A DNA stretch of 64,000 bases from Owenia fusiformis (lineage: Eukaryota; Annelida; Polychaeta; Sabellida; Oweniidae), in assembly GCA_903813345.2 (NCBI GenBank), contig CAIIXF020000004.1, forward strand, positions 14,205,196-14,269,195, read 5' to 3'. The position numbers were made by a program, and so were the translations under genes. Shown here in pieces: positions 291-57,713 of the stretch. The notes under the pieces are model-generated. The model was not told the DNA's origin. It did no database searches and saw nothing but the letters and a program-made list of their open reading frames with translations. Numbering within the stretch: position 1 is the first letter of the stretch; the number at the start of each line of letters is the position of its first letter.

Positions 291-1381
291 CTGTTGGTAA
301 ACTTGATATCACCGCCATTGATGTGATACATTCCAGCTCCTCCGACACCGTCGAACCAATGCTCTATTCTCTCCATTGGATTAGGACTGTCAAGGTCACC
401 AAATGAACCCCCAATTTGACGGATAAAGCGACCTTGGTTAATAAGAAGGAAAAATGTTACACACGATTACATACAACACAACTTTAAATCGTTTCATATT
501 ATTCTTATTTGTTATATTCGTTAGTATACATGTATTAAGGATTATAATGGATTTTTTGACCAAATGTATCATTTATTTTACAAGGTGTCGACTTTGTAAG
601 CACCATCCTTATGTATATTGCCATACGTTTAAACTTCTCCAGCGTTATGCATTCTTGTTAAGATCAACCAAAGTAGCACTGAATTTATGAATTTCAAGAA
701 CGATGGATTAGGCTAAAATGGACAATGGTGTTTATTGACCTAATTTTTCATATTTTTATACACTTTTAGGACTTGCATAATTTTCAGAGCATCTCTGAGA
801 GTTCTCGGATATGTACATGTTGCATAAATAATATACGTGTTTAATTGACCATGGCCGTTGACATCTTAATACCCGATATAATAGGGGCCTTTGATCCATA
901 GTTTTATCTGGTATGGTTTATTGCTCTTGCGCTATACTATTTAAATGTTCACTTTGTCAAACATTTGAAGCATGTGTGTTTCTTTGCTTTCAATGTTTAG
1001 ATTATTGAATGTGTATTTATTTTAAAAAGTACTATACACGGTTCTTCTCTTATTATCTGATATGAGTTAAGCAAGATATTTCAAACTATTTCTAATCCTA
1101 TGATGTGCTATTTCAAATCATCTTTGTAAAGTTCTAGTATGAGTTTCAAGAAATAATGTGCTATGAATAGTCTCATTTTTTGGACATGCATTTATGTCAT
1201 AAAAGTTTCGAATTCTTCTCTAACCCTTACCATTTATCCAATCGGGGAATTCACCGCTGACTTTAGTAACAGAAGCATTGGTAAATTCAGTCATTAGTGT
1301 TTCGAATCCAACTTTTGCATGGTTATTGATGGCTTCGCAATACAGGAACATTAAACACAACTGTGACAATAATCGTAACAT
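291..1381 (-). CDS. Carotenoid oxygenase-like gene, copy D, first two exons (partial)
   Basis: I place two exons on the minus strand: exon 1 at 1381-1231 (ATG at 1381-1379, donor GTAAGG) and exon 2 at 432-291 (acceptor AAG, donor GTACGT). The rest lies beyond the left edge. Exon lengths and phases match copies A and B (exon 2 is 142 nt in all three). The protein begins with a hydrophobic signal peptide (MLRLLSQLCLMFLYCEA), followed by a stretch like the N-terminus of RPE65/BCO/CCD enzymes (FETLMTEF, SGEFPDWINGRF). The conserved EHWFDG motif is in exon 2. No lesion is visible in this part. From the family I expect an iron(II) dioxygenase that cleaves carotenoid or apocarotenoid double bonds. 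The signal peptide suggests entry into the secretory pathway. Activity cannot be judged because the four histidine ligands are encoded off-window. Confidence 0.75.
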
Positions 1382-2008
1382 TTTCCTCTTTATTTAGACG
1401 CCGTGCAGCAGTTTTACTATCTTCGATGTAGTTTGATGTTTGAAAGATCAGTCCTCTTTTAAACGCTCTTGCTCTGCTGATTCATTTAGTATGGCGTATG
1501 AATCAATGGATACAGACTCATACGAATGACCCATGTTTACATGTTGTATTTGCAGATTGTATTAAATATTAAGATTAGTTCAGTTTTACATTTGAGAAGA
1601 TTGTAACGGTATCTTTTTGGGCTTATTTGATAATTGTTAAGTAATGTTTGGATAAGATAGCATATGTATGAAATAAATACACCCAGGAACATTTGCTTTA
1701 AATGTGCATTATGATTGTCAGATACTGCTAGGTATTAGAACCCGTACTTATCGTTCGATCAGTATTTGTTTAGCTACTTCAATAATTTCAGACAATGTAT
1801 TTTACTTATCCCTAATTTCCAAGGGTAAAACAAGCGCGTGGCATTCAAACAATCAAAGCGAAGTTCTAGTGCATTCGGGTTCAATGCCCTCGCGCTTATC
1901 TATAGCTACATGTAGGTGTGATATTGTAAGGACGAAGACAAACGTCGGAGGATAACGATAAGGCATACTCGTCTTCCTCAGCATAGTTTAAAATGTGCAA
2001 AATCTCTC
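1382..2008. other. Upstream region of copy D, no gene seen
   Basis: This AT-rich stretch should hold the promoter of copy D, read leftwards from 1381. I recognise no TATA box or other element with confidence. A degenerate tRNA-like segment at about 1832-1897 has a B-box-like GGGTTCAATGCCC, but it does not fold into a convincing tRNA. Confidence 0.4.
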
Positions 2009-4180: not shown

Positions 4181-4450
4181 ATAAACAGGATGTCATGTTC
4201 GTTGATTTTCGAAACAAAATGTGCCACGTTACACCATGCCATAGCTGTGACAGGTAGGAAAGAGGTAAGATGGTCCTCAACTATTTGATCTTAGTTTTTA
4301 ACCCCTCCTACATTCGGAAAGTAAACTAAAGATTTTTGATAAATGTAACAACATTTTAATAATTTTAGTTATAATATAAGACAAGGTATATAAGCAATAC
4401 AGATTCGATTATTTTAGAGACATCTCTTTACATCCGCAAAGTCATACACT

Positions 4451-4884
4451 ACGTGCACTGTCTTACCTTGGTGAGTCACAAACATTTGTACTGTCTTACC
4501 TAATGAGTCACAAACATTTGCACTGTCTTAACTGGTGAGTCACAAACATTTGTACTGTCTTACCTAATGAGTCACAAACATTTGCACTGCCTTACCTTGG
4601 TGAGTCACAAACATTTGTACTGTCTTACCTAATGAGTCACAAACATTTGCACTGTCTTAACTGGTGAGTCACAAACATTTGCACTGTCTTACCCAATGAG
4701 TCACAAACATTTGCACTGTCTAAACTGGTGAGTCACAAACATTTGTACTGTCTTACCTAATGAGTCACAAACATTCGCACTGTCTTACTTGGTGAGTCAC
4801 AAACATTTGCACTGTCTTACTTGGTGAGTCACAAACATTTGCACTGTCTTAACTGGTGAGTCACAAACATTTGTACTGTCTTAC
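4451..4884 (-). repeat. 32-bp minisatellite of exon 7 end plus splice donor (copy C)
   Basis: About 13 tandem units of 31-33 bp follow the real exon 7/intron 7 junction. On the minus strand the unit reads ATGTTTGTGACTCA, two variable bases, AG, GTAAGACAGT(G/A)CAA. The first part repeats the last codons of exon 7 (Met-Phe-Val-Thr-His-Gln) and the second repeats the 5' splice donor. Some units keep AG/GTAAGA; others read CCAG/TTAAGA and have lost the GT. Most units also contain TGACTCA. The same array occurs in copies A and B. Confidence 0.9.
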
Positions 4885-5345
4885 CTGATGAGTCACAAAC
4901 ATCGGATCTATTTCCATTGCAGCAACGACCTCCATGTTGGATTTTCTCACTACATAAACTTTACTTTTAATTTCACTCCTGAATTTCCAAAGCCTTTTAA
5001 ATGTTGGATCACCTGGTGCGGAATAAACTAAAATGCAGATAAGAAATGCCGTTTAACAAAAGCGAGAGTTAATATCCATGGTCACTGTCAATACCCGAAT
5101 GATATTCTCACAGAAGCTGGAGACGGGGAAAGGAAATATCATACATATATGAAATCAAAATATTACTTTTTTCTTCGCACATGTATGGTGTTAAACACTG
5201 CGGTTCACATAAAACAAGAACATTGAATTGTTGTAAGAACCAACTGTTTGTTACATTTGAGTAAATCTAGATCGTAATATAACTGAGTCCCTGTGCTGCT
5301 ATCTGAAAAATGAACAAAAATAACATACTTACTAAAAGCATCACA

Positions 5346-5619
5346 CGCGGTAGCTAGGCGTCGTTGTCGGTTCAAAAAAAAAACCAAAACAAATAACAAA
5401 GCAATGAGCGTTTGAAAATATAGTTACTTTATAATTGCGTTACAATTAGGTGCTAGGCCAATCTTGGTCGGCGGCGTGCGTCTACGCGGTAGCTAGGCGT
5501 CGTCGTCAGTTAAAAAGCAACGACATTGTTTGTTTGTAAATAGTGATTATTTTCAATTTAACATAAATTGTATACATGTATCTCCTTTATATAAAGGGCA
5601 ATAAATATATACATACATA
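5346..5619. mobile_element. Short insertion in exon 6 of copy C with 7-bp duplication
   Basis: Exon 6 of copy C is split by 274 bp flanked by CATCACA on both sides (5339-5345 and 5620-5626). One end has a short ACAT/ATAC-type simple tail (about 5606-5620), which suggests a SINE or non-LTR-type retroposon. Inside, CGCGGTAGCTAGGCGTCG occurs twice (5346 and 5483). No coding capacity is visible. The class is inferred from the tail and target duplication only. Confidence 0.6.
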
Positions 5620-5933
5620 CATCACAGTAGTCCAACATCATTGATGTGCCTGGGATTATGATGTAATCCTTGGTCATGCGCATAAATTATGTAGGTCAAC
5701 TCAATTTTGAGAATTCGTTCGACTTTCTCTCACCTGAAAAATACAAAGACACTTCTTGATATAATTTCCACGAGAAACATGATTACAACTAGGGTCAATT
5801 TGAAGACAAACAACGTCGCTACATAGTGGTCCAAAAATTTGAAAGATTAAGGTAAGGAGCTCCGAGAAAAAGCAAAAACAACCGATCCGTTGTTTTTCAG
5901 AATCTCAACTTGCCTAGGGTTTTTAATGCTTGG

Positions 5934-20559: not shown

Positions 20560-21037
20560 CTACAAATTTTGGCTATTAACATACACTTTGTTTATTAACA
20601 CACATTTTAGCTATTAACATACACTTTGGCTATTAACACACATTTTGGCTATTAACATACATTTTGGCTATTAACACACATATTTTGGCTATTAACAAAC
20701 ACTTTGACTATTAACACATATTTTGGCTATTAACATACACTTTTGCTATTAACACACATTTTGGCTATTAACATACACTTTGGCTATTGACACACATTTT
20801 GGCTATTAACATACACTTAGGCTATTAACACACATTTTGGCTATTAACATACACTTTGGCTATTAACACACATTTTGGCTATTAACATACTTTTTGGCTA
20901 TTAAGAAACGTTTTGACTATTAACATACTTTTTGGCTATTAAGACACATTTTGGCTATTAACATACTTTTTGGCTTTTAAGACACATTTTGGCTATTAAC
21001 ATACTTTTAGGCTGTTAACATACATTTTGGCTATTAA
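20560..21037 (+). repeat. 19/38-bp minisatellite downstream of P1
   Basis: About 24 units of roughly 19 bp alternate TTTTGGCTATTAACATACA and TTTGGCTATTAACACACA types. The array lies between the P1 stop codon and the first AATAAA, so it is probably transcribed as 3' UTR. P2 has only about five units at the same place. Confidence 0.8.
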
Positions 21038-29227: not shown

Positions 29228-29432
29228 TATTTACCGAGAAAGTTATACAGTCACGTCAAAAGTAATAAAAATTGAAAATATGAAATAACAAATACCATTT
29301 TGTGTAGCTATAAGAAGTATGCTCAAAATACATTTCAATATACTAAATTACTATGAGCACATCCAAGATTTAATGGATGTACATTTCGCAGTGCCCCATT
29401 TCACATTTTCTCAAAATATTGCCCTTTGCATG

Positions 29433-34504: not shown

Positions 34505-34602
34505 TTATACGAATTTTGGCTATGAACATACACTTCGGCTATTAACACACATTTTGGCTATTAACATACACTTTGGCTATTAACACACATTTTGGCTATT
34601 AA
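34505..34602 (+). repeat. 19/38-bp minisatellite downstream of P2, short
   Basis: About five units of the TTGGCTATTAACATACAC type are present, against about 24 in P1. The probable polyadenylation signal follows at 34611-34616. Confidence 0.75.
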
Positions 34603-34787
34603 AACAATTTAATAAAATGCATGGATAAATAGAAATGAACGTGTTGTTTCATGAATGTAGAAGCAGTGATCTGGTAATCTTTCTATTATCATTCAGCAAA
34701 TCATGCTTCCGAGCATTTATATGATTAATTTGATTCTTGTGATAAGGAGTATGTGCCACTCAGTGTTATTCATTCGAAATAATGTTG

Positions 34788-37777: not shown

Positions 37778-40700
37778 TTACATCCGCAAAGTCATAATCG
37801 CTGTAAGTGTGGCTAAAACGATCGACTGCACTGTTCGTGTGACACCAGATGATGTGTCATTGGATCGATCTGGGTAGAATCTATTGTGGAGACCAACTGG
37901 GATGATGGTAGGCGCATGGAATCTGGCAGTCTCTTTCATTGTCTTTGCATCCACCAATGCAACGAAGGCTGAAATGATCAATACACATTGTGTAGGTCGT
38001 TAGAGGGTTTGTCCTTGGAGTGTTTCTAAGAATAAAAACTCATAAACATTTGCATGTACATGCGAATATTTAAAAAAATTGTAATACATCAGATGAATGA
38101 TCCTCATTTTAAAAGACTACTTCTTTCAACCATATTGTTTTATATATGAAAAAGAAATGAGTCAATAGTGTATATTACTCCTCGTAGAAACATGATGACG
38201 CCAGTATCTGCACTTTTATCTTACTTGTATTATCCGGGACGCTGATGCCGTTTAGTAACAATAATCCATCGTCCTCAACTGTGGCACCCGGTCGTGGGAT
38301 AAAAATAGGTTCCCATGGCATGTGTCCGAAGCCAGGGTCATAACGCAATTCTTCTTTTGTATCTACATTCAACTGAAACAATAATATATTTGTATGAATT
38401 TCACGTTTTTTTCATTTCAAATAAACATCAACGATGCATTGCTACAAACGGAAAATGGAACAACTACTGGTGGATGGCTTCGTAGGAAAATTAAGTGAGT
38501 GTCCTTTACTGCATCTTCAGCAGGCGTCTATTTTCTGAAATGCTAGCTCCAACTTCCATTTCAAGGTTATCATTCTACCTTAAGGTTTGACTAAATTCTG
38601 CCGAATTTCATTTTGACAGTTCTGCATCTTAAATTTTCAAGAGCTGCTAAATTCGATTAGATATCTAAAATCCTTGTTTGAGAAAATACAAGTGCATTTA
38701 GAATAAAAGCACAAGTTCTGAGATTGGTTCCAACACTTTATACTCCCTATGGCGTCAATTTCCTTTAATTTCCATTTATATTTGATTGCAACTATATCTG
38801 AAAGGAGTCATTGTATGGACTTTTGGGCGACCTCATCCCATTGAACGATTTTGGTTCAAATCTCCGAATGGGGGCCCCTCCTCGCTGTAAAATGTCCCAT
38901 TTGTATTCAAGACACTAACTAAAGCCAGGAAATAAATCCACATTGAACTATTAAGTTACATAATGAAATATTCCATCAATTTACCTTCAGTATAGTTGAG
39001 TTTTCATGTAGTGCATCCATCACAATGTAAGCATATTTGTACTCCTTTCCATGGAATGCATTATTAACCTGACTGAACTCCGCATTGACAGGATAATCCG
39101 TTGTCAAATGTTGCTTTGTAATACTCCAGTTGCTTGTATCAATGACAAATCTTGCGACATCTGTTACAAAATTTGTCTAGAAATTCAAAAAAAGAATGTT
39201 TTAAACAGTAAGAATACAATCATAAAACATATGTAAAGAAGAACTAAAAATCAGTATCTAAAGTCTCCCTAAATGAATGCTTTTTTGCTAGAATTTGCAA
39301 TAACAAATTTTCATACGTAAAATAGCAATATGCTGCTGATGGAATGCCAAATGAATATGTGATTTGACATCTTTCCTCAGTTGTTGGATTGATGATGGAA
39401 CAACCGACAAATTAGTCACAAGTTTTCTTGGCACAAAGGCACTGCATCAGAAACATATAGCTATTTTTTGTATGAAGAATGTTATTGCAAATCATAGCAG
39501 CAAAAATGCTCATTCATTTTGTTACTCAAGGAGCACACGCGTCTCGAACTCGCAACCTCGTGGTTACGGCGCCCAATAAGATAGATTTAAGAAGAGTGGA
39601 TTGGTTAGTATGAAGATCTCAAATTGATTACCATAGCATAAATGAATTGATTGCTTTTGTTGCAACCTCGGGTGTTGATGCTATCGCCATACGAGTTCAT
39701 GAACTATTTTTTGATATTTGACCACTTATTTTTAGAAGACGGTTTAACACTATGCATTCGACTTTTATATGCCATTTCGTTGGTTTCATGGTCTTTTACT
39801 AACTAAAATACGATTATGCATTGAACTTACTCCATTGAACATGTCTTGGACTTTCAGATCATAGTACACTCTTTCATTGTCGTAAACCAACATGTCAGCC
39901 GTTATCTTTCCATCTTTTTCGTAAGCATTCAACTGGAACTTAATTGTGCCAATGTAGGTGTTTCATGTAAAGGTATTGTAGCGAAACAAGGGTTAGGGTA
40001 AGAGCAACTCACTATAATGTAATTTGCTCGTTTTGATAGGTGGTCTGATTTTCATTGGAAAAATCCTCGATTGCTGCCCTGATTGGCCCAAAGGCCATCG
40101 GATAATGCTTTGTTCCAGACACCCGACTCTAAATATTAACCGTTTCAATTTACTTACTTACAATATGTTTAGGCCTATTTTCTGTATTTTCAATACCTCT
40201 CGGTCTTTACACTTAGGGTTCTTTTAATACACATTTGCACTGTCTTACCTGGTGAGTACCAAACATTTGCACTGTCTTACCTAATGAGTCACAAACATTT
40301 GCACTGTCTTACCAAATGAGTCACAAACATTTGTACTGTCTTACCAAATGAGTCACAAACATTTGCACTGTCTTAACTGGTGAGTCACAAACATTTGCAC
40401 TGTCTTACCTAATGAGTCACAAACATTTGCACTGTCTTACCAAATGAGTCACAAACATTTGTACTGTCTTACCAAATGAGTCACAAACATTTGCACTGTC
40501 TTAACTGGTGAGTCACAAACATTTGCACTGTCTTACCTGGTGAGTCACAAACATTTGCACTGTCTTCCTGGCGAGTCACAAACATTTGTATTGTCTTACC
40601 AAATGAGTAACAAACATTTGCACTGTCTTACCTAATGAGTCACAAACATCGGATCTATTTCCATTGCAGCAGCGACCTCCATGTTGGATTTTCTCACTAC

Positions 40701-43700
40701 ATAAACTTTACTTTTAATTTCACTCCTAAATTTCCAAAGCCTTTTAAATGTCGGATCACCTGGCGCGGAATAAACTTAAATGCAGATAAATAAGAAATGC
40801 TGTTAAACAAAAGTGAGGGTTAATATCCACTGTCAATACCCGAAGAATGTTCTTACGGATGCTGTAGACGGGGAAGGGCAATATCCTACATAAGGAATCA
40901 AAATATTACTTTAAGATTTTTATTGGTAATGTATAATGTTGAATTGTTGTAAGGAACAACTGATTGTTACATTTGAGTAAATCTAAATCGTAATATAACA
41001 AAGCCCCTGTGCTGCTATCTGGAAAACGAACACAAATATACTCACTAAAAGCATCACAGTAGTCCAACATCATTGATGTGCCAGGGATTATGATGTAATT
41101 CTTTGTCATTGTAAATGAATGGAGATAAGGCATCAGTTTTGTAGTATCTGGATATGGAGCTCCGTTACATTCTCCTAGTGATATATTCCCCATAACAATT
41201 TCTCCCTTGGGAATTCTCGTCTCGTTTATAACTTGGTATAAAATAAGCCTGAAAATATAAACTTTAATGTACAGTGTATTGTCTTATGGAGTAAAGCATG
41301 TAATAAAAGTGAGGATCACATCTAGATAACTATGGCATTGCTAATTAATTATTCTTTTAACATACATGCACGGACTACATTTTATATTCATTTCATGGAT
41401 AAAACTTATTTATATAGGTTTCCGATAAAATATTATTATTGTTTACATATTACACGAATCGCACAAAACAAAAATGATATAGACAGCAAAAATACCAAAA
41501 TTGTCTCGTGAATTCACAGCGTTCGACAAACTAACACCATTCAATGGACATTTAAGGTCATTTAAGTCTTACTTTGACGTCAACAGACCTCTCCTCCCGG
41601 CTGGAGTTAATGGTACAATGGCACCTGTTATCATCCACTGCTCCCCCGTTACCATGTCGATTCGATCATGTGCAGGTTGATTGACTAATATAGTCCCCTC
41701 GGGCAGTCCAAAATGTGGTCTATCCTTATATGGATACAGTCCCCTGCTCTCCATAGTGTCTTTATTTAGTAGCATAGCTTTTAAGTGAATATAAACATTA
41801 ATAAATGAAACCCCATAATGGAAAATTGAATTTATTAATCTTATTAAAAGAATAAAAGAAAACATACATGTACCTTATTGAAGGTTAGAATGAACGAATG
41901 AATGAATATTGTAGTTTATTGATTTTAGGTTTCTGCGCTTCACATCAAATAATGTTGAAATAAATGTCACCTTGGTATTTACATGTATTGTCTAGCCTCC
42001 CATACATTTACAAGGTTACCTAATCTGACCATGTTTTCAATACAAATAATTAAAAATAAATATAAAACAAACATATAGCTAGGACAATTTATTTACGTTG
42101 ATGATTTTCTGTTACTGCCAAGATCTCCTCTTCAAGTTTCCAGAAGTTGACAGATGGATTGGAATCTCGCTTATCGGGAAACAATCTCAGGTTCTCGATC
42201 ATTCTAGTATAATTCTGAAAATTGTGAGAACTTCACGATCCAATATTTCGATTGAAAAGACTTACATTCTTATTTAATATGCAAGGATGTGTAAACATAC
42301 TGATCAACGGGTAAATTCCAAAAGGTAAAAAGCATATCAAAACATGTGTTAGTGGAACATCTTTGGTACCAAGAAGGTGTTCAACTTGGGAAGTGTTTCA
42401 CTTACAGAGGCTCATATATCAGTAAGTCAGTCGGTCATGGGACTCTGAAAAGTGTTCAACTTCGTAGATGTTGCACAGCTTTTGCTGTCTTAAAAAGTGT
42501 TCAGTAAGCTGGTTGAAACTTGAACACTTGTATAAGTGTACACATACATTTCGGTCACGAATATTATTGTTAGTTTAAAATGATACATACTTAGTACTTA
42601 CATAAGGTGAAAAGATGGTGACCCAACTAACTTGGGACCTCGCCCAATCATTGTCAAAACTTTTCCAAATGTTGTATCCTCTCGTATCGTAAAACCTAAG
42701 ACATGATATCATGTACATCAAGGAATCAAGGTTTATAAAATAAAAATAAAATATTACATAGTGGTAAAGGCAATATAAGGAACCTAAGTAGAACCATACT
42801 CGCATCCTCAAAGAATCTTAGACTGAGACAATCTAAGTATTTTTAAATCATCATAAAAAATGTTATGAATAAATATACATTTCGAGGTATCAAAAGAGCA
42901 AAAAGGGGTTATACTAATAAAGAAAAGCTGGACTCTTGAGATAAAAAAAGAAAATTACAACCGATTTTAAGGAAAAATACACAACAGTAATCGAACTTAT
43001 ACACGCTGAACTAACTTCAACCATCAATTTGTATTTTTGACCTACCAGATGCTTGAAAATAAAGGATTGCGAGTTTCATGCTACACCGTTTTTCTTCAAA
43101 CTTGTTCCATTCAAAACAAAACAAAATTGCTGTCGGTGAATTGCTTTATTGTAGAGTCCCTCGTTTTAGCAGCGTTTTGGTCCCCAGCTGTTTGAAGCCT
43201 TTCTCATAGCTGGGGACAAAAATGCCGCTGGAAGTAGGGATAACTTTTTAATGTACCAACAGAAAGGATTTTTTGTTATAATTTGAATGTAACAAGTTTG
43301 AAGAAAAACGGTGCAGTATGAGACTCGCAATTCTTGATTTTAAAACATATGGTTTCAAACCCAAAGCCAAAAATCATGGAAACATATATTCAAAATTATA
43401 TTTCCCGGGGTGTGTGTAACTTAATATCTTGGTGTTAAGTCTGCACACAAACGTATACACTTTGTAACTCATAAATAAGATAAGCGTACTTGTTTGTGAA
43501 CTTGACTTCGCCATCCGTAATATGATACATTCCAGCTCCTCCGACACCGTCGAACCAATGCTCTATCCTCTCCATTGGATTATGACTGTCAAGGTTACCA
43601 AATGAACCCCCAACCTGACGTATGAATCGGCCTAAAATAAACAATGTGAACTAAGCATTTCATAAAAATGGCAAAAAAGAAAAAATGTAAATCTTTATGA

Positions 43701-43951
43701 GCCCTACGCTATGTGACTCTGCCTTAAGCACCTCTGATTAACCAAAATAACTTCGACTGAGGCAATATATTAATATACTGTTACTTACCCTTTATCCATT
43801 TTGGAAATTCTCCACTAACCCTTGTGACAGATGCATTTGTAAATTCAGTCATCAGTGTGTGAAAGCCAACCTTTGCATGGTTATTTACGCCTAAACAACC
43901 CATGCACAGCCAACATAGCTGTAATACTATCATCAACATATGCCTCTCCAT
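37778..43951 (-). CDS. Carotenoid oxygenase-like, copy B, 11 exons, one nonsense codon
   Basis: Exons: 43951-43789, 43631-43490, 42695-42602, 42214-42097, 41777-41573, 41248-41046, 40774-40632, 39932-39831, 39176-38985, 38372-38225 and 37968-37778 (1701 nt, 566 codons plus stop). All have AG/GT borders, but exon 4's donor is weak (AAC/GTAAAT). A signal peptide (to about residue 22) precedes the RPE65/BCO/CCD fold. Iron-ligand histidines by alignment are H209 (PAHDRID), H284 (YLHSFTMTKNY), H355 (THxLNAYE) and H531 (PVGLHNRF). EPIFIPRPGATVEDDG is the typical late motif. The C-terminus (SSG, spacer, hydrophobic SIVLATLTAIMTL) looks like a GPI-attachment signal. Codon 356, the last of exon 7, is TAG where A and C have CAG. 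B is thus either a recent pseudogene or an allele or sequence variant. I infer a cell-surface carotenoid-cleaving or -binding protein. Confidence 0.85.
39528..39580 (-). ncRNA. Possible tRNA-derived SINE relic in intron 8 of copy B
   Basis: On the minus strand GGCGCCGTAACCACGAGG then TTGCGAGTTCGAGAC resembles the 3' half of a tRNA with a B box (GAGTTCGAGAC). The 5' half and A box are not recognisable. It may be the head of a decayed SINE. Confidence 0.35.
40233..40631 (-). repeat. 32-bp splice-donor minisatellite, copy B
   Basis: About 12 units lie directly downstream of exon 7 in intron 7. Variants at the junction are CATTAG/GTAAGA, CATTTG/GTAAGA, CACCAG/GTAAGA and a donor-less CACCAG/TTAAGA. 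The unit touching the exon is the CATTAG type, which puts a stop codon at the end of exon 7. Neighbouring higher-order doublets (two unit types alternating) resemble those in copies A and C. Confidence 0.9.
43039..43350. mobile_element. MITE in intron 2 of copy B
   Basis: Inverted arms of about 55 bp (GGATTGCGAGTTTCATGC, CACCGTTTTTCTTCAAAC and complement) enclose a second hairpin (GTCCCCAGCTGTTTGA against CATAGCTGGGGAC). Single arms of the same family are at about 55745-55830 (intron 2 of copy A) and 61940-62040. Confidence 0.7.
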
Positions 43952-45850: not shown

Positions 45851-48800
45851 TTATATCAGTAAGGTCATAAGTGCAATAAGTGTTGCTAAAACGATCGACT
45901 GCAGTGTTTGTGTGGCGCCAGATGATGTGTCATCGTGGGATGGATCTGGGTAGAATCTATTGTGGATACCAACTGGGATGATGGTAGGCGCATGGAATCT
46001 GGCAGTCTCTGTCATTGTCTTTGCATCCACCAATGCAACGAAGGCTGAAAGAGTTAATAAACATTGTATCGTCTGTGATTAATTCTGAGAATAAACCTGC
46101 ATTTTTTAAGGGGGAGTTAAAAAATCCAGGGGCTCACATTTGACAACGTTGACAACTTAAATAGTTCTCAGAATGGTGAAAACTGCATGGTTTTGAATGC
46201 GAACATGTTAAAAGAAAATTGTAATACATCAGATATGTGAACCCCATTTAGACATCTTGTTTCAACCATATCGGTTTCTAATTGAAAAACACATGACTAA
46301 AGAGTTTAGGATCAAATCTACGATACTCGATATATTCAAATTCTGTAATTCTACTAAAGCAACAAAAAAACTTTAAGAAATATTTTCAATATATATCGCA
46401 TGGTCATGATTACCAGTTGTGTTTGCATCAAAATAGCACACATGAAATGTTGGTGATATCACACACATGATTCAGGCTGTGGTAGAATAACAGAATTTGA
46501 ATATATTAATTATCGTAATTTTGCCCGGGTATCACTCCTCGTCGAAATATAGTGACGCCAGGATCTGCACTTTTATCTTACTTGTATTATCTGGGACGCT
46601 GATGCCGTTAAGTATCAATAATCCATCGTCCTCAACTGTAGCACCAGGTCTAGGGATAAATATAGGCTCCCATGGCATGTGTCCGAAGCCAGGGTCATAA
46701 CGTAACTCTTCCTTTGTATCTACGTTCAACTGAAACAAGATTATATTTGTATTAATTCGATGACGGCTATTTTGTTAAATGTAAGATACACGTTGTACTA
46801 GCTTTATTTTAGGATTATCCTTCTATCTTTTAGATTTTCTAAATTTGATTCAATACTGATGAATTTTATGATTTCAATTATCTTCTTTATCAAAATACAT
46901 TTAGTATCATATCCGTAACATTGTTACGATTTTGAGATAGGCTCAAACACTTTATACTCTCTATTTGTCAATTCGAATTCCTTGATTATCATTTTTATTT
47001 GGATTACATACTTGGTCTGAACAGATATTCCAAAGGTGCCACTCTGCAAACGATTGGGGCGTGATAATTACCGAATAATGAGGTTTGTCCTTGCTATCAA
47101 AATCTTTTATTTGTACTGGTATTTAACATACTAACTAATATAAAAGCCAGAGAATTAACCAAGAATTCACATTTTAAGTTATAGTGAAATTTTTGCATCA
47201 ATTTACCTTCAATATAGTTGAATTTTCATGCAGAGCATCCATCACAAGGTAAGCATATTTGTACTCCTTTCCATGGAATGCATTATTAACCTGACTGAAC
47301 TCCGCATTGACAGGATAATCCGTTGTCAGATGTTGCCTTGTAATATTCCAGTTGCTTGTATCAATGACAAGTCTTGCGATATCTGTTACGAAATTTGTCT
47401 AAAAATTCACGAGTGAAAAGTTTATGTTTTATACAGATATATTTTAATCATAGTACATAGTACCATAGTACATTGGTATTTATATACGACGATCTCAAAT
47501 TTATTATTTTTATTGAATGGTTTAAAGTGCAATACAGGACATATTGTGCTCGAGAAATTCTGTATTGGTACAAGACGAAGTATTGCATTGCACTTTAAAT
47601 CATTCTATCACGTTTTTATCGTGTGATCTTAAGCGAAATAGGAGAAAATTCCTGGAAAATATTCTTGCTCTGAGATTGTCCCCCCGTACCAAGATTTTCT
47701 GTATTGCTACGGAGATGATCAATCCCGTACCAATACTAGGTGAGGGGACAATCTCAGTAGCAATACAGATTGGTACAGCACGATAACTGGCCAATCAGAG
47801 GGATTTATTATACAGATCATACGATAAATTAAATATTGACTGCCAAAGTTAAAAACAATTTTCATAAGAAGTACTAGGATGCAACACAAAATAGAATAAA
47901 CCAACATAGATTCATGGTATTTTACAAACTAGAATATCATTATGTATTAAACTTACTCCATTATACATGTCTTGCACTTTGAGATCATAGTATACTCTTT
48001 CATTGTCGTAAACCAACATGTCAGCCATTATCATCCCATCTTTTTCGTAAGCATTCAACTGGAACCACAAGAAGTAAGTAGCTCCCATAATTATTTGGGA
48101 TTATTTAGTAACAGGGACTTCCTCTTAGCTTTCCAAACATGGCCCTACACGCCTTATATGGATCTATCACACGACATTAAGTAAACAGTAAGCTCGATTC
48201 CAATATGGTCCTAAAAGCCTTTTATGGATACATCAGATAGATACCATATGACAAAGTGCCAACTCTGAACTCTTGAAAATCCCCTTGAACTAGAACGTAT
48301 TTATGTCAATGGAAGTATTACTTGTAGAGGTAGGTTAAGCATAGGTAAAGGGGACAAGCCATTAAGAGGCCATTCTCTGACTTAGTCATTTTTTCAAAAG
48401 TGTGAAATAAAAAAATTCATGAAAAGTTCTTAAAGTATTCTGAATAACAAGTTGAATATATATATTTAATGATGGCACACGCAAAAGTCTGAAAATTAAC
48501 ATGAAATGAAGGGTTTTGACAGATGCAAAAGATGGTAGATTTGTGATGAAGAAATAGAGGTTTTTGCAGTGACAACACAATTACCTCAAAGTTATCCGTT
48601 ATGAGAGGCTGAGGACTAAACTTGAAATAATTTTCAATCTCAGATTATCAGTAGTATCTAACTTAAGCCGGACAGCCACTCAAAATGTATATGGAGCCCA
48701 TAAGATTCATTTTTCTCAATTGAAGTCACTATTTCTGTTTTTAGCTTCAGAGGATAGGAGGTACATGAACATGCTAAAGTTACCTAGATCACAAGCCGTA

Positions 48801-51800
48801 CCACAAATATAAAGTATATAGGAATAGAGTTGATATGTGTGAAAACCTTAAACTTCCCATTTTATTGGGGATGGAACTTGTGGACCATGTGTATTTCTAA
48901 CTTCTTCACATCTGCATGGATCTAAAATTGTGGCAGCCATCTTGGATTTGTCATATATGTGGACATGGTTTTGGTTGTGCTGAATTTGTTTCAAAATAAC
49001 ATTTCTTGTATACCTTCGATAAGTGAGATTGGCATTTGGCATAAAATACAGATAGTATACTTGACATTTAATGCAGTAAACAGTAATACAATTCATTCTT
49101 ACATAATAAGTGAGTCCTGACAAAAAGTTGTTATTGTGTTAGTTTAACTGGGCATAAATTACACTCATTGGCCTTGGTTTTCTTAATTGGCTTGGATAAA
49201 ATGTTGTTCTGTTTATTCAGAAAAGGAGTATAGTTCAATATACAAGTTCACATTCGTTCCATCCTTGTAGAAATGAATCTCATATTATTTCATCTCAAAT
49301 ATAGAACACAAAAAAATAATAAAAAACAAGTTTCTATTAATTGCAAAAGTTAGCTTCTATGTCATGACTGAGTTTGGGTTCCGCTTCTAGGGAAAAATAT
49401 CTATATGGAAATATCATATTGACCATTGCTATACACTCCATATTTAATCCTCCCAGTAAATAACATTGATATACAGTATACAAGTATATATGACATCGAG
49501 GATCTGGGGTTTGGGTAATGTGAGACATGAGGCCACTTGTCTTTTTGAATCTTATATTCAATATTCTTTCTTTAAACCCTCATATTTAATATTTTTGGAG
49601 TGGTAATTCAATTATGTACCTATTTTTTTATTCTTTATCCCATAGTTGAACTCTGTTCCGCTCTGTTAGGTAACATGAAAACATATTTGTGATATTTTGC
49701 AAATGCGTGGAAAAAGTGATATCTGTGGAATACGGAAAATATTTCACAGATATCACCTTTTGGCAGGGATTTGAAAACTACCACCAATATGATGTGTTTT
49801 GTTACATAGTGATTTCATGACATCACGGGGATGAATGTATGTTGTTTTGATATGTTTTGTTTAGTTTTAGAGGTGAACTATGGGAAAAATAGAACATCCT
49901 ATGAATTTTCGTGATATTGTGTTAATCCAACTCATTGATATCAATATCTGCGCTAATTCGCTATTCTAACTTGGCAAGATATTGATATCAACTCGGAGAT
50001 AAAGATAAAATCATTTAAAATCATATAATATCCTATACATATCCTTTACTGTGCCACAACTTTCTCATTTGTTATATATTTTGGCACAGGCCATCATTTA
50101 TTTTCCTTGAATTCATGCTTTTGTTCCTCGTTTTAGAAATGAGAGGAAATCTTTGATTTTCCTTGTATTTAAGTTGCTTAAAGGTTCCCCTGTGATGTTG
50201 ATAAAAGTCAATAGTAATCCATTACAGTCACAGTTGAAATGTACCCATTGCTAGCCCAGAACCTACCAAAATAGCATTTGCATTTTGTCAATATTGCCCT
50301 ATGTGCTTTTCCATGAAAATAATTTTAATCGTATCTTTTCTTCAGTATTTCATATATTACATTTTGATATATTTGAATTGGTTAATATTTATATACTATT
50401 TACTTAGACAACAATAAATAAAGAATTTTTTGTAAAAACACCAAAAATGGTATATGATCTTTAAATGACTGTTGTGTGAACATCAAAGGTCAAAATTCGC
50501 TGAAATTGTATTTTTATAAAGCACAAATAATTTTTCTTCAATATGATATGCATTATTATCAGATATCTTTGGGGGCTAAAAAGGGCCCTTAATGACACCC
50601 GTCCTTTGAATGAATCTTGATCAGTTTCGAGAGATGGACTGATTTTCATTGAAAAAGGTCCTCGGTTGCTGCCCTGATTAGACCAAATGAACACCGGATG
50701 ATGGTCAAATGACCGGATGATACTCAAACCTAGAAAAATACCCTTTAATATACTTGCGATCTTATTCGGATTGTTTTCTTTTTTGCTGTGTTATGTAATT
50801 AAACGATTTCTAATGTTTCCCCATTGGCCATTGCCTTGCATATTTGCTTTTAATACGTCTCATTTTTTTACACTTAGGCTCTTTATTTGCATGTTTGCAC
50901 CGTCTTCCTGGCGAGTCACAAATATTTGCACTGTCTTCCTGGCGAGTCACAGACATTTACACTGTCTTACCTGGTGAGTCAAAAACATTTGCACTGTCTT
51001 ACCTAATGAGTCACAAACATTTGTACTGTCTTACCTTGGTGAGTCACAAACATTTGAACTGTCTTACCTAATGAGTCATAAACATTTGCACTGTCTCACA
51101 TGGTGAGTCACAAAACATTTGCACTGTCTTACCTGGTGAGTCACAAACATTTGCACTGTCTTACCTAATGTGTCACAAACATTTGCACTGTCTTACCTGG
51201 TGAGTCACAAACATTTGAACTGTCTTACTTGGTGAGTCACAAACATTTGCACTGTCTTACCTTGATGAGTCACAAACATTTGCACTGTCTTAACTGGTGA
51301 GTCACAAACATTTGCACTGTCTTACCTGATGAGTCACAAACATCGGATCTATTTCCATTGCAGCAACGACCTCCATGTTGGATTTTCTCACTACGTAAAC
51401 TTTACTTTTAAGTTCATTCTTAAATTTCCAAAGCCTTTTAAACATTGGATCACCCGGCGAGGAATAGACTAAAATGCAGATTAAAAATATTGTTTAACTT
51501 AGATGAGAATTAATATTATTATTAATTGCTTTTCAATACCCAAAGGATGGACTTACAGAAGTTGAGGAGGGGGTATTTATACAGCTTATCAATATATTAT
51601 TGTAAGATTTGAATTTATTTGTACATGTATGATTTAAAACATTACGATTCACATAAAGTAGAATCATTAATTTGTTGATAGAAATAATTCATAATAAGTC
51701 ATAGAGTGTTACATTTGAGTAAATCTAGATCGTGAGATAACATAATCCTTGGGCTGCTGTCTGGGAAACGGACATGATAACAAACTAACCGAAAGCATCA

Positions 51801-54800
51801 CAGTAATCCAACATCATAGATGTGCCGGGGATTATGATGTAGTTCTTGGTCATTGTAAATGAATGAAGGGCATCAATTTTGTAGTATCTGGATATGGAGC
51901 TTCAGTTACAGGGTTGCATTCACCCAGTGATACATTCCCCATAATAATCTCTGCCTTAGGAATTCTCGTCTCGTTTATAACTTGGTATAAAATAAGCCTA
52001 AAAATAAATATACTTTCCCCATAATAATCTTTGCAATAGGAATTTTCGTCTCGTTTATAACTTGGTATTTCACCACCACGTCGAACACAGACCGGCGAAC
52101 TCCAACCGCCAAACATTGTCCACAAAAGGTTGAATAGCAATATGTAACGACTTCTAGTGGTGACATAGAAGGACCACATGTATAAAATGTTATAACCTTT
52201 GCATCGCTAATAACTATGAATTTAACATACGGACGCTCTTTTGAAAGCATTTTTTATGCCGTATTTATATAGTTTTTTTCAAATGATATCATTATTCGCC
52301 AACATACGCGAGTCGCACGAAAGAAGAATGCCATTCAACAATAAAATTCACTCAATATCTAATATTCCAAAACGGACTTTTAACGTACGATACACCAAGT
52401 ACTGTTTAATGGATATGACTAAAGTCATTATAACGTTCAATTCGAATCTTACTTTGACTCCAACGGACCTCCCATCCCGGCTGGTGTCAATGGTACAACA
52501 GCACCTGTTACCATCCATGGCTCCCCCGTTTCCATGTCGATTCTTTCATGTGCTGGTTGATTGATCAAAATAGTCCCCTGGGGCTGTCCTATATCCGGTG
52601 TATCCTCAAATGGGTATTCTCCCCTGCTCTCCATTGTATTTTTATTTAGGAGCATAGCTTATAGGTGAATAAAATTTAATCATATATGTAACAGTCCTAA
52701 AGAAAAAAAATTAATTCTACTAATTTTCATTGGTATATTTCAATTGATCACGATTTTATGGCCATTTTACAAAATATGTCTAATATCAAGAAATGTTAAA
52801 ATTAATATCACCTTCGTATTTTTGTCTGCCTTTAGATTTTACAAGGTGACCGAAAATGACCAGGTAATCCATACAAAAAAATAAGTAAAAAACAAACAAA
52901 TAGGGCAATCTTTACCTTGATGATATTCCGTTACTGCCAAAATCTCCTCGTCTGGCTTCCAGAAAGTGACACATGGATTGGTATCTAGCTTATCGGGAAA
53001 TAATGCCTGGTTCTCGATCATTCTAGTATAATTCTGAAAAAATTGTGAGAACCTCAAAAACCAATGCTTTGTCATTAAAAGGTTAAGTTGCACCCATTTG
53101 GGAGAACTCGCGTCGAACGTAAATGACCCCCAGGAATTGTTGTCCCTCTCTTAATTGGCTTAAACGGGGACGTTATTACAACGATTTCCCCAGACCTTCA
53201 TACCCAATCTGGCAAATAAAGACAAGTTGTGATGATCCTCCCATACTTAATACAATGTTATGTGATTATTCTGGAGGATTATCACTTTGTTTAAATTGCT
53301 CTTACCTTTATTTATCAATTATGTTTGTAGATACTTCATAATTCAGGAGTTTGTTCAGAATTTTCTTATTTCACTACTTCCTTGTTCAGCCATGTTTGTT
53401 GACGGTCTCATTGAAAAGTTTATATTGTAAGGGATAGATTGGTAGGTCAATTATACGAGTTGCTTGTAATTTTGTCACCCATATAGATCTGATTCTGCCT
53501 TTAAGCGATTACATTTTACTTTGAGACTATAAAAGTTTGGCTAGATTTTAACTTGAATATGTTGTAAAGTGCTTTAATAATTAAATAGATCGATCATGTA
53601 AATTGTATGATTGTGTTTGATAGCTTATTTGACAACTTATTATGTATTTAAACATGGTTAATGGGGGCTATTCGAGTTAGTTTTTTTATTTGCCCCGGGT
53701 GCCTTGATTTCAAGTTACTATGGCAACCATTTCTTATCTAATGTTTCTGTTATTCTAAATATTGTTTGCTTGATTAATAAAACATTCCATGCTGCACATT
53801 CTGTGAAAATTTCATTTGAAAATATTGAAAAATAAAGAAATAAGAGAGATATTATGAGAACTTTATGATCAACCCTCGTATATCATCTTTTTAGATACAC
53901 TAACCTAAGTGAACGGGTTGGTAAGGTAATGGAATTGCTTTTACTTTAAAACAGAGAAACTGTTTATACTTTTTCCTTGTTGGTGAATCTTCTGATTTCT
54001 CTCACTCATTTAGCTTCATTTACATTAGCATAAATTCATTTAAACCATGTTAAGGGTTATTATATCAGGTTCAAAAAGAATATTCAGGGCCATTTTGTAT
54101 GAATACGACTTTGATTTCAATCTGCCTGGTCACACCTTGTCTCAAATGTGGCTGTACATATTTATATAGCAGATTGATTTGAACTTTCAGAACTGTATTT
54201 CTAATTAAACCTTCATAAGCATTGAGTGAGCTACGTGTACATTCTTGTGAGAAGCATTTCTGATTCATTTGACATTTACAGATTGACTTACATGTAGATT
54301 TAAGATTCAATCGCCAACTTGATATTTTTGGCTTTATCTTATATAATTTGAGGGAAATATCTGCTTGCCAGTGTTGATTATTTGAGTTACTACAATATTC
54401 ATACTTAAAATCTACATTTTGAACTGAAAATTTGAGAGAATTACCAGCTATTTATTTCACTTTTATATGTATTGCAACTGCCTAATGTATTCCATATTAT
54501 TGTTTTTATGATGACAATACAACCCATCTTTTGCCTGTATTGAATTAATTAGACAGGTCATTTTACCAAGTGAGGAAAACTGGCAGGCAGAATTAAGAGT
54601 AGCAAGTTACGTTATAGTTTGCATTGAATTTTCTAGATACACTGAATTTCATAAGTGTATTTGACTGAAAATAACGTTACTTTCTGTTGTATTGCATAAC
54701 TGACGGTAAATCTATGTAGAATTGTATAACCAAACACATGTATATATCTTGAAATAGAGTTGAATTATATTCATTTTATATAATTTCCCATTACATTCTC

Positions 54801-57713
54801 TGTTGTGTTTAATGATTGTGTAAAGTGAATGTGGATATAGATCAGTGTTTAAAAAGTCCCCCATTCCCATATATTTTACAATCTATTATCAAGCTAGACC
54901 ATTAGAAATCCAAATACTTGATAGCTGGGTAACCCAGGACCACGCTACCCAACACCCTGGGTTGCCACAAAGTGAGGTGAACATAATACATAAAAAGTAC
55001 ATTTAAATCTAACACACGTGGACATTAAAATATGGTGATAATGATCTTTCATCTGAAACTAATAGCAACATTTGACTTCATAAGCTCAATACATCCTTAC
55101 CAATAGCTACTAGCCCCGGAATATTTATCTTTAATCACAGTTAATATTTTGTATTAATAAGTATGTAACAATAGAAAACGACACAAATATGTGTTAGTTT
55201 ATAACTATATATACTTACATAAGGTGAAAAGATAGTGGTCCAACTAACTTGAGATCTCGCCCAATCATTGTCAAAACTTTTCCAAATGTTGTAACCTCTC
55301 GTATCGTAAAACCTAAAAATAACAAACGTATATGAAATGGAATTTTGAAAATTAAAACTTCATGAATAAATATTCATTTCAAGGTGAACATATGTAATCA
55401 CAAGAGGCAAACGGGGGATATATCAAAAAATGAAAAAAAGATTTAAATAAATAGAAAAGAGAGAATGCCAGAATACAATTAAAGTAACGAAAACCGAGCA
55501 TTCCAAACAATAATCAACTCACAATTCACTAATTAGCAAAACCATACGTCACCTTTCTCCGACCTTACTTGAATCATTCACCCGAATCCAAAAGACTATT
55601 TTTTTTATTTATTTACTCAATTTATTTGTATCAATATAATACAGTTTATTACAAAAGTTGCTCCTCAATCGCTTTTCAGCATTGTAGAGGAGCAAAATAA
55701 ATGAAAAATAAGACAATACACAACAAATGTGTTATGCTTTGAATGGACCAAGTTTGAAGAATACGGTGCAGTATGAGACTCGTAATCCTTGATTTTCAAA
55801 CATCCGGTAGGTCAAAAATTCAAATTAACGGTCGAAGTTAGGACCGCGTGATATAGTCTCTGGTTTAAACGTTTCTAAACATTGTACGACACATTGACCA
55901 GAATATAGCGTTAACATTATTTCTTATCCACTAAGCATACTCACAAACGTAAACATTATGTAATTCAAAAATAAATAAAGCATACTTGTTGGTAAACTTG
56001 ACTTCGCCATCAGTAATATAATACATTCCTGCTCCCCCAACACCGTCGAACCAATGCTCTATTCTCTCCATTGGATTAGGACTGTCAAGGTTACCAAATG
56101 AACCCCCAACCTGGCGTATGAAACGGCCTAGAATAAATATAAATAAACATAAGATAACATATTGTATGCTGAAATCTTGAAAAAGACTTGGGGATACAAG
56201 TCGAAAGCCTTGATCTAATAAAAAGTTCTCTGAAGAAATGAATAAAGTTGTTTTAGTAAACATAAATGACAGTTAAGAAACAAACTGCATACAACTGTAT
56301 CACCCTGTAATAATACTTTTCTAGGTTATTTACCATCTTTAACGGAACATAGTGTACTAAAACAGTTTTAGATATTTAATTCATCCTTGGTCCAAGAGTA
56401 TTTCACATGATTTATTCGATAGTGAAAGCATTATAGTGAAACCCTGATCTTGAAGCATGGCTTGTCTGGACGTTCAATTTTTTAACACTTGAACACTTTT
56501 CAATTGAAAAGGACTCTCGATTGATTAAAAGAAAGGTTCGCTGATTTCATTCGCATGACCTAGCTCATTATTCTGATTTAGTTTTCATCAGTAAGTGTAG
56601 ACATCAAGCTTGCATGTTTGTATATATACTCCTAAAAGAAAGTTAAGGACCAGTGATTTTCCTCATAGGTTTACATGTTAACCCCCATATTTGTTTGAAC
56701 GACTATTTTCTGGGCTTGGATCAAAAGAAAACCCGATAAAGTAAATACATCTGTATCTTGATTCTATTCCCTATAAAGTCTGCAACATTTAAATGTTATA
56801 TCTCCATTATATTGGGTCAAAATTTGATGTCAAAATTGATGAATTTCATGAAATTTAACAAAAAGCAGATCCCATGTTAAACAAATGGGGAATGGTGGCT
56901 AAGGGGCAACTCACATTTTGGGATATCTATTCAGTGAAACATTTGTTAAAAAAACTTTCTGAGTAGAAAATCGAATGATTTTACATTTTACATGCTAAAT
57001 GTCTAGCTTATATTGGTAAAATTAGCGATACATAGTAATTTTGACCACTTCACTGACCACCTGTGTTATTTCAATAAAAGGATCCTTAAAATAATTTTTT
57101 CTAAATTTCTTGAAATTCATCAATTTTGATATCAAATCTTGACCCAATGTAATGGAGATATAACATTGAAATTTTGCGGACTTTAGGGAATAGAATCAAG
57201 ATACAGATGTATTTACTTTATCGGGTTTTCTTTTGTTCCAAGCCGAGAAAATAGTCGTTCAAACAAATATGGGGGTTACCATGTAAACCGATGAAGAAAA
57301 CCACTGGTCCTTAACTTTTTTTGAGGAGTATATAACTCACTTAAAAATGAATTTGATCTGTGTTTAATTCATAACGCTAGCCTGTGATGCACATTGCGCT
57401 AGGCAGCGCCCAATGTAACTACTTTTTAAGACACCAAAATCTGTAAGTACTTTGCCGCATGAGAATTGAAATAAATGAACTGAACTGAACTTGGATGATA
57501 TATTGGAATCTCAAATTATGGCTGGGTCAATATATACTGTAACTTACCCTTTATCCAATTTGGAAATTCTCCACTAACCCTTGTGACAGATGCATTTGTA
57601 AATTCAGTCATCAGTGTCTGAAAGCCAACCTTTGCATGGTTATTTACACCTAAACAACCCATGATACACAGCAAACATAGCTGGAACGCGATCATCAGCA
57701 TATTCATCTCCAT
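45851..57713 (-). CDS. Carotenoid oxygenase-like, copy A, 11 exons, one frameshift
   Basis: Exons: 57713-57548, 56127-55986, 55312-55219, 53033-52916, 52657-52453, 51997-51790, 51468-51326, 48058-47957, 47398-47207, 46729-46582 and 46044-45851. Sites and phases match copy B. Exon 6 is 208 nt instead of 203: a 9-bp in-frame insertion (after GECN) and a 4-bp deletion near 51865. The deletion shifts the frame just at the second iron-ligand histidine and gives TGA at 51852-51850. Everything else is intact: signal peptide (MEMNMLMIAFQLCLLCIMG), EHWFDG, PAHERIDMETGE, THQLNAYE with CAG at the exon 7 end, EPIFIPRPGATVEDDG, PVGIHNRFYP and a GPI-type tail (DDTSSGATQTLQ then SIVLATLIALMTLLI). The family performs iron-dependent cleavage of carotenoids. 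This copy is either a recent pseudogene or carries a local sequence error. Confidence 0.85.
47514..47608. repeat. Stem-loop in intron 8 of copy A
   Basis: GAATGGTTTAAAGTGCAATAC faces TTGCACTTTAAATCATTC as an inverted repeat with a loop of about 50 nt. The neighbouring 47640-47790 carries a second imperfect inverted pair around GAGATTGTCCCC and GGGGACAATCTC. It is probably a small decayed MITE; no function is evident. Confidence 0.5.
48059..50888. other. Long intron 7 of copy A, no gene inside
   Basis: Intron 7 is 3.3 kb here against 0.7 kb in copy B; the extra 2.6 kb is AT-rich, largely unique sequence. I find no exon or transposon protein in it. The 32-bp array occupies its 5' end (next entry). 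Confidence 0.5.
50889..51325 (-). repeat. 32-bp splice-donor minisatellite, copy A
   Basis: About 13 units follow exon 7, which ends CAT CAG/GTAAGA. Units farthest from the exon (about 50900-50945) are degenerate (CAGGAAGACAG, no donor GT), suggesting that older units lie distal. TGACTCA occurs in most units. Confidence 0.9.
52017..52072 (-). repeat. 56-bp duplicate of the exon 6 start inside intron 5 of copy A
   Basis: The segment repeats 51938-51993 (most of the first codons of exon 6: YQVINET, then IIMG) with five or so changes. It lies just upstream of the real exon 6 acceptor. Without its own good acceptor it should not be spliced in. Confidence 0.65.
53034..55218. other. Intron 3 of copy A, no gene inside
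   Basis: 2.2 kb against 0.4 kb in copy B. It is AT-rich. AACCCTCGTA near 53870 resembles one terminus of the mariner-like element at 25403 and may mark a decayed insertion whose other end I cannot place. Confidence 0.4.
56623..57334. mobile_element. 712-bp inverted-repeat element in intron 1 of copy A
   Basis: Arms of about 230 bp (TATACTCCTAAAAGAAAG, then TTAAGGACCAGTG on the left; complement at the right end) enclose a roughly 200-bp centre. The arms are over 85% alike by eye. TA-rich ends suggest a Tc1/mariner-type non-autonomous element. There is no coding capacity. Confidence 0.75.

What the first reader, a model, noticed from the sequence alone, without database searches (positions are those of the whole stretch)
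4451..5027. A 5' splice site turned into a minisatellite, in three paralogues
The 32-bp units next to exon 7 (4451-4884, 40233-40631, 50889-51325) are tandem copies of the exon 7 end (codons Met-Phe-Val-Thr-His-Gln) plus its donor GTAAGACAGT. Each gene therefore offers the spliceosome the true donor plus 12-13 decoys downstream. Because 32 is not a multiple of 3, choosing a distal donor shifts the frame unless three units are skipped. Units come in donor-competent (AG/GTAAGA) and donor-dead (AG/TTAAGA) types that partly alternate. The repeat begins one codon after the third iron-ligand histidine. Its presence in A, B and C means it predates the duplications and has been kept. I know of no described case of this type.
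Basis: partly seen in the sequence, partly recalled or inferred. Interest (0 to 1): 0.85.

Follow-up and report, generated by a model that had tools for sequence, protein, structure and literature searches.

The report
Donor splice-site minisatellites ("mirages")
In the genome of a lophotrochozoan animal, the end of one exon together with the splice signal behind it has been copied 12-13 times in a row in a small family of carotenoid-oxygenase genes; this is a known kind of oddity called a "mirage", but here it recurs in several unrelated genes, which makes it a natural test of how splicing picks one signal among near-identical copies.

Summary
Exon 7 of carotenoid-oxygenase (PF03055) copies A, B and C, and of a fourth copy E outside the window, is followed by 12-13 tandem 32-bp copies of its last 18 nt plus 14 nt of intron. 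The unit was found nowhere else in the 498-Mb genome.

Parts of the interpretation fail. Skipping three units does not save the frame: decoy donors run into an in-frame stop (VRQ[C/Y]KCL*). The arrays are not in three intact genes: A is a fragment, B's own unit ends in TAG, C has a 4-nt frameshift; only E is intact. The kind is described: amphioxus "mirages", and human F7 intron 7, where only the most upstream donor is used.

New is the breadth. The host looks lophotrochozoan; paralogue Z has its own 65-bp duplication at the same boundary; a nearby beta-carbonic-anhydrase gene has a 31-bp x 45 donor array; in a two-pattern survey, 16 of 25 array loci start at an exon-like end, 7 with database support. 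In UGDH, NCS1, Rab27, XPNPEP3 and DNAH2 genes, conserved protein joins the first donor to the next exon without a gap. Most likely the arrays are passive because the first donor wins. No RNA was available.

The parts
4885..5027 (-). Copy A, exon 7 (143 nt), ending CATCAG|GTAAGA; A is a gene fragment
   Evidence: tblastn of B exons finds only part of exon 6 and exon 7 here; phase and ends as
4454..4884 (-). Copy A, 13 decoy units of about 32 bp
4381..4446 (-). Copy A: sequence matching the end of exon 11 and the 3' flank of B, joined to the array; exons 8-10 and most of 11 are missing
   Evidence: local alignment with B over 66 nt, one mismatch; no exon 8-11 hit between 1430 and 4885
5618..5677 (-). 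Copy A: remnant of exon 6
   Evidence: 20-aa tblastn hit, 90%
37778..43951 (-). Copy B: eleven-exon carotenoid-oxygenase gene model, one in-frame stop
   Evidence: exon models with GT-AG ends and fitting phases
40632..40774 (-). Copy B, exon 7; its last codon (40632-40634) is TAG, so the coding end carries a unit identical to decoys B7 and B11
40231..40631 (-). Copy B, 12 decoy units
45857..57713 (-). Copy C: eleven-exon gene model with a 4-nt deletion in exon 6
   Evidence: exon 6 is 208 nt against 212 in E and Z, frame lost
51326..51468 (-). Copy C, exon 7, ending CATCAG|GTAAGA
50894..51325 (-). Copy C, 13 decoy units
51790..51997 (-). Copy C, exon 6 with the frameshift
52005..52076 (-). Copy C, duplicate of the start of exon 6 inside intron 5 (acceptor-side counterpart)
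   Evidence: above 200 of 200 controls; alignment
291..1384 (-). Paralogue Z, exons 2 (291-432) and 1 (1231-1384); its exon 7, with its own 65-bp duplication of the boundary, lies left of the window (L001 1994-2120)

Best explanation
It is a donor-side 'mirage': a tandem duplication across the exon-7/intron-7 boundary that arose in the ancestor of A, B, C and E, grew to about 13-14 units and was carried along passively in intron 7. Splicing most likely uses only the first, exon-bearing donor, because the splice site nearest the upstream acceptor is committed first (oriented 5'-to-3' choice, as reported for human F7). The decoys stay silent or nearly so; any decoy use gives an early stop just behind the third iron-ligand His, so no alternative protein results. 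Shown here: the anatomy, the single origin, the stop behind every usable decoy in C and E, purifying selection on the coding parts, and, in other genes of the same genome, that conserved protein uses the first donor of such arrays. Inferred: actual splice choice, silence of the decoys, and growth by slippage or unequal exchange. A side effect, suggested but not proven, is that array-type sequence can overwrite the coding unit (TAG in B, CAC in E).
For: Unit composition and absence elsewhere. The exon part comes first: the same protein end stands in paralogue Z, which lacks the 32-bp array. Shared units and aligned distal flanks (B-C 30, B-E 41, C-E 226 local score; no shuffles run on these) point to one origin. 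Decoy use gives VRQCKCL* in 11 of 11 GT-bearing decoys of C and of E. dN/dS 0.19-0.21 and dS 0.09-0.29 among B, C, E. In UGDH, NCS1, Rab27, XPNPEP3 and DNAH2 genes of this genome the exon before the first donor and the next exon align without a gap to solved homologues (5e-38, 3.9e-52, 2.8e-53, 2.5e-35, 3.5e-36). Among 19 donor arrays the period is a multiple of 3 in 7 (6.3 expected), so no sign that the frame through the array matters. Literature passages: mirages do not disturb regular splicing; only the most upstream donor of the F7 repeats is used.
Against: No RNA was available, so donor choice is not observed. Only one of the four array-bearing copies (E) is intact, so the array could have harmed its hosts. 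Some decoys score at least as high as the true donor (2 of 13 in A, 4 of 12 in B, 5 of 13 in C, 3 of 13 in E), so strength alone cannot explain a single choice. The joined proteins were put together by eye from translations.
Confidence: 0.8

Rival explanations
1. The array is a regulated poison switch: decoys are used under some conditions, every use truncates the enzyme behind the third His, and array length sets how much active oxygenase is made.
For: Every usable decoy in C and E ends in the same stop; 9-10 decoys per array score like real donors; the array was kept while the coding sequence was under purifying selection.
Against: The stop follows automatically from reading the unit in the shifted frame. 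In the wider set only 10 of 18 arrays have a stop before the first decoy and 4 of 18 (XPNPEP3, L026, L041, L050) could insert residues in frame, so there is no common logic. No RNA.
Confidence: 0.09
2. One reading: decoys give alternative proteins, in frame when three units are skipped.
For: 3 x 32 = 96 is a multiple of 3.
Against: The first read-through unit holds TGA in the exon-7 frame; extensions divisible by 3 (C4, C8, C9; E2, E3, E6, E9) also stop after VRQCKCL.
Confidence: 0.01
3. The array is a cluster of AP-1/bZIP sites (TGACTCA) working as an intronic enhancer; the donor is a passenger.
For: 48 of 55 units hold TGACTCA; that this is the AP-1 consensus is recalled.
Against: The 7 positions of TGACTCA deviate 8 times over 51 decoys, no less than neighbouring windows (6 to 9 for the windows at positions 1-2 and 4-7). 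Other donor arrays of the genome have unrelated units.
Confidence: 0.03
4. The array damages its hosts and is on the way out: units move into the coding position and inactivate copies.
For: B's exonic unit (TAG) equals decoys B7, B11 and C10; E's (CACCAG) equals E7, E11, B3, C4, C6; A's and C's CATCAG units are unlike all decoys. A, B and C are broken.
Against: Each change is one transition, so point mutation explains it as well. A and C were broken by a large deletion and a 4-nt loss in exon 6. E is intact.
Confidence: 0.05
5. Assembly artefact (wrongly expanded or copied repeats).
For: Tandem repeats are error-prone; no reads were seen.
Against: The four arrays differ in unit order and lie in diverged gene copies; similar arrays stand in unrelated genes.
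Confidence: 0.02

Closest known systems
Amphioxus 'mirages' (Adh3, globins BflGb6 and BflGb9, troponin C, PGBD5)
   Same: [quoted passage not shown] reported not to disturb regular splicing (PMC3087553 and PMC3902484, passages).
   Different: Here the host has lophotrochozoan Hox signatures (signatures recalled), the array was carried through gene duplication into four copies, and every usable decoy of C and E leads to the same stop. Unit lengths given for amphioxus are 10-72 bp (Adh3) and 150-160 bp (globins).
Human factor VII (F7) intron 7, 37-bp repeats
   Same: [quoted passage not shown] an oriented scanning mechanism uses only the most upstream donor; cryptic downstream donors are activated when it is mutated (PMC6627357, passage). 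The original study (Borensztajn 2006) was not held.
   Different: Single human gene, tested in cells; here several genes of one genome, untested.
Variable internal tandem repeats in human segmental duplications
   Same: Minisatellites at exon-intron boundaries of recent paralogues that can change gene structure (PMC2812944, passages).
   Different: Those are mostly exonic repeats with proposed intron gain; here the donor boundary itself is the unit and exon length is unchanged.

Membership tests
[quoted passage not shown]
   18 nt exon + 14 nt intron per unit in A, B, C, E; 4 of 40 introns positive, all intron 7
[quoted passage not shown]
   38 of 51 decoys score within the range of real donors (9+9+10+10)
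[quoted passage not shown]
   No RNA. Indirect: in five other genes with such arrays the first donor gives the conserved protein without a gap
[quoted passage not shown]
   One assembly only; paralogues differ slightly (12 or 13 decoys)
[quoted passage not shown]
   11 Antp-like homeobox matches in one cluster, one followed by KLTGP (Lox5 mark, recalled), others with QAIKEIN and QQIKDLN; species not identified
F7-type first-donor rule | Exonic unit is the most upstream copy and its donor is the one used | tested here: inconclusive
   Position met in A, B, C, E; use inferred from protein conservation only
Carotenoid oxygenase family (PF03055) | Family profile match and FHH-region motif | tested here: met
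   Z product: PF03055 4.3e-65, 221 bits, cut-off 27; MFVTHQLNAYEKDG aligns to FFAFHHVNAFEKQE of 6vcf
Genome-wide satellite | Unit present at unrelated places | tested here: not met
   44 of 44 hits lie in the four arrays

The most novel reading that the evidence does not exclude
Donor minisatellites are a common feature of this lophotrochozoan genome, in conserved genes as well as in this family, and are tolerated because its spliceosome follows a strict first-donor rule. They are not fully silent: a small leak to decoys, growing with array length and mostly ending in stops, tunes the output of each gene, so array length is a heritable rheostat of expression.
Probability: 0.12. Interest if true: 0.88.

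Novelty: new member of a known kind. Interest (0 to 1): 0.6.

Why it matters
How a spliceosome chooses among near-identical donors is mostly studied with mutants and minigenes. Here a genome supplies natural arrays of up to about 45 donor copies in genes whose correct product is known from protein conservation. RNA reads over these junctions would show directly whether the first donor always wins, how fast use falls with distance and number, and what the leak costs. It also extends a feature known to me, and in the papers seen, from amphioxus and one human gene to a protostome-type genome, and suggests that boundary-spanning duplications survive because they leave the first donor intact.

Tried and rejected
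Species: no COX1 match in the assembly, so mitochondrial gene order could not be used; the Hox cluster served instead. I first expected amphioxus because mirages are known there; the Lox5-type mark speaks against it.

AP-1 array: tested and not supported.

Selection for weak decoys: variant types counted by hand from the table fall in the 9 donor positions 13 of 31 times (expected 8.7, p = 0.069) or, with an insertion added, 14 of 32 (p = 0.042). Too weak and hand-counted; not used.

Word enrichment: CAGGTAAG x3 gave 303 matches against 65 for the backwards word, but AGGTAAGT x3 gave 213 against 357. Match counts are ruled by a few large arrays, so I claim no enrichment. By distinct loci in the listed range (C1 to C4:12.7 Mb) the first word has 11 loci, or 9 if the three dispersed-satellite loci count as one, its control 3.

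Exon-like calls: 9 of the 16 exon-end loci rest on an open frame and an acceptor seen by eye, without database support (L026, L028, L031, L040, L041, L042, L043, L047, L048); no control was run for that judgement. The name DIP2 for L048 is recalled: no Pfam match up to E 0.1 and no PDB match up to 0.001.

mis-estimates some periods (doubled for bCA, XPNPEP3, BCO_E; wrong for Z), so its decoy-donor lists were not used; only its stop distances were, with periods from TRF.

C1 cluster of PF03055 genes: fetched, TRF and tblastn run, gene models not completed, boundaries not tested.

Papers said to lack the case: searches; several listed only part of their hits (9: 15 of 308, 30: 15 of 102, 72: 10 of 125, 83: 8 of 25). 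The earthworm paper PMC12783039 (passages) has minisatellites in intron 1 but the passages describe none spanning a donor.

Full report
What is there. The window lies in a 498-Mb eukaryotic assembly (contig C4:14205196-14269195). On its - strand is a tandem cluster of carotenoid-oxygenase genes: the spliced product of paralogue Z matches PF03055 at 4.3e-65 and solved carotenoid oxygenases. I modelled four eleven-exon genes, Z, B, C and E, with GT-AG ends and fitting phases, and a fragment A. Z lies mostly left and E right of the window.

The arrays. TRF gives 32-bp arrays at 4454-4902, 40231-40649 and 50894-51343 and in E. Each begins with the last 18 nt of exon 7 and goes on for 13, 12, 13 and 13 decoy units in A, B, C and E. 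A unit is 18 nt exon + 14 nt intron, about 32 bp, with a few 31- and 33-bp versions. The unit was found nowhere else in the assembly (44 of 44 hits). Intron 7 is the only donor side of 40 introns in which the exon end recurs above all 200 controls; it does so in 4 of 4 genes. On the acceptor side one intron (C intron 5) is above all 200 controls and two more (Z3, C10) are reached by 2 of 200.

Origin. The exon part came first: Z has the same protein end (MFVTHQ) but no 32-bp array. One unit type occurs identically in all four arrays (A1, A7, A11, B4, B8, C1, E2), mean identity of units is as high between arrays (0.874-0.897) as within (0.875-0.904), and the flanks behind the arrays of B, C and E align. 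So the array and its unit types predate the duplications (dS 0.29 for B against C and E, 0.09 for C against E). Z has a separate duplication at the same boundary: a 65-bp unit, 2.0 copies by TRF, a weaker third piece by alignment. Whether this is a second origin or an older layer I cannot tell.

Decoys. With a donor profile from 36 donors of these genes, 9 of 13, 9 of 12, 10 of 13 and 10 of 13 decoys of A, B, C and E score within the range of real donors; 2, 4, 5 and 3 score at least as high as the true donor of their copy. Reading past the true donor meets TGA in the exon-7 frame within the first unit. All 11 GT-bearing decoys of C and all 11 of E end in VRQCKCL*; A reads VRQYKCL*; B stops at its own TAG. 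The idea that three skipped units restore a product is therefore wrong.

State of the copies. A keeps part of exon 6, exon 7 and the array, which is joined to the end of exon 11. B is open except for TAG as the last codon of exon 7. C has lost 4 nt in exon 6. Z and E read through. B, C and E show dN/dS of 0.19-0.21, so the array was carried in genes under purifying selection before A, B and C broke. B's and E's exonic units are identical to decoys, A's and C's are not; this fits overwriting from the array but one transition each explains it too.

Beyond the family. TRF on fetched flanks showed a 31-bp array of 45 copies behind an exon of a neighbouring + strand gene (C4:14196261-14197647). The exons before and behind it match Pro_CA, PF00484, at 5.7e-8; all 40 pattern hits in the assembly lie in this array. 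I then searched for three close copies of CAGGTAAG and of AGGTAAGT (lists cut at the first places of 303 and 213 matches). The listed places form 25 distinct loci. Sixteen begin at the end of an exon-like open frame. Seven of these have database support: XPNPEP3-like (PF00557 4.9e-19), DNAH2-like (PF08385 1.4e-14), one with PF15874 (6.1e-8), UGDH (PF03721 1.5e-10), NCS1, Rab27, and a Kringle exon (6.6e-6, below its cut-off). The other nine rest on the open frame alone. Of the nine remaining loci, one lies about 50 nt inside an intron behind a PheRS-like exon (PF01409 4.4e-4), three belong to a dispersed 22-bp satellite, and five are unclear (L030, L036, L037, L038, L045).

First donor. For UGDH, NCS1, Rab27, XPNPEP3 and DNAH2 I joined the exon before the array to the next exon behind it and compared with solved structures. 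All five align across the junction without a gap. The conserved protein thus uses the first donor of the array. This is evolutionary evidence, not a view of splicing. For the DIP2-like gene no structure was found; its next exon is itself preceded by a 72-nt duplicate of the acceptor side.

Frame. Over 19 donor arrays (BCO counted once) the period is a multiple of 3 in 7; 6.3 are expected. Of 18 tested, 10 have a stop before the first decoy; 4 (XPNPEP3, L026, L041, L050) would allow an in-frame insertion (periods from TRF). The arrays look like intron sequence without frame preference.

Known context. Passages of PMC3087553 and PMC3902484 describe such repeats in amphioxus as mirages and state that they do not disturb regular splicing. 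A passage of PMC6627357 describes the human F7 case, with use of only the most upstream donor by oriented scanning. The host here has 11 Antp-like homeobox matches in one cluster with a KLTGP mark behind one, which by recall means a lophotrochozoan.

Verdict. A real feature of a known kind, explained best as a passive mirage under a first-donor rule (0.8). Its interest lies in the recurrence across conserved genes outside chordates, which makes donor choice directly testable.

Noticed in passing
L005 262-1648 (C4:14196261-14197647): 31-bp x 45 donor array behind a beta-carbonic-anhydrase-like exon.
   Followed up: yes
L027 from about 1535 (C2:378.8 kb) to L056 about 1070: 30-bp donor array of several kb behind an XPNPEP3-like exon.
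   Followed up: yes
L034 from 2097 (C4:3068.7 kb); L039 from 1030; L044 from 1358; L049 from 1362: Donor arrays behind exons of DNAH2-, UGDH-, NCS1- and Rab27-like genes.
   Followed up: yes
L054 (reverse strand, about 150-300): DIP2-like gene (name recalled): 72-nt duplicate of the acceptor side before the next exon, in the same intron as the donor array.
   Followed up: partly
L029 2240-2351 (reverse strand): 21-bp array with donor words starting about 50 nt inside an intron behind a PheRS-like exon, not spanning the donor.
   Followed up: partly
L032, L033, L035: Dispersed 22-bp satellite that contains CAGGTAAG or CAGGTTAG at three loci.
   Followed up: no
20562-21037 and 34513-34606: 19-bp arrays with the same unit about 1 kb behind two near-identical + strand ORF groups (17306-19590 and 31069-33370).
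   Followed up: no
27251-29230: 660-aa open frame that looks like a reverse transcriptase of a retroelement by eye; no search run.
   Followed up: no
G000: C8:18012087, C12:26563101, C1:41772401, C11:34701389, C1:27721594, C4:1758673: Six PF03055 matches that cover nearly the whole family in single open frames of 479-538 aa, as intronless copies would.
   Followed up: no
G000:C1:17970454-18468329: Cluster of 11 Antp-like homeobox matches, read as a lophotrochozoan Hox cluster.
   Followed up: partly
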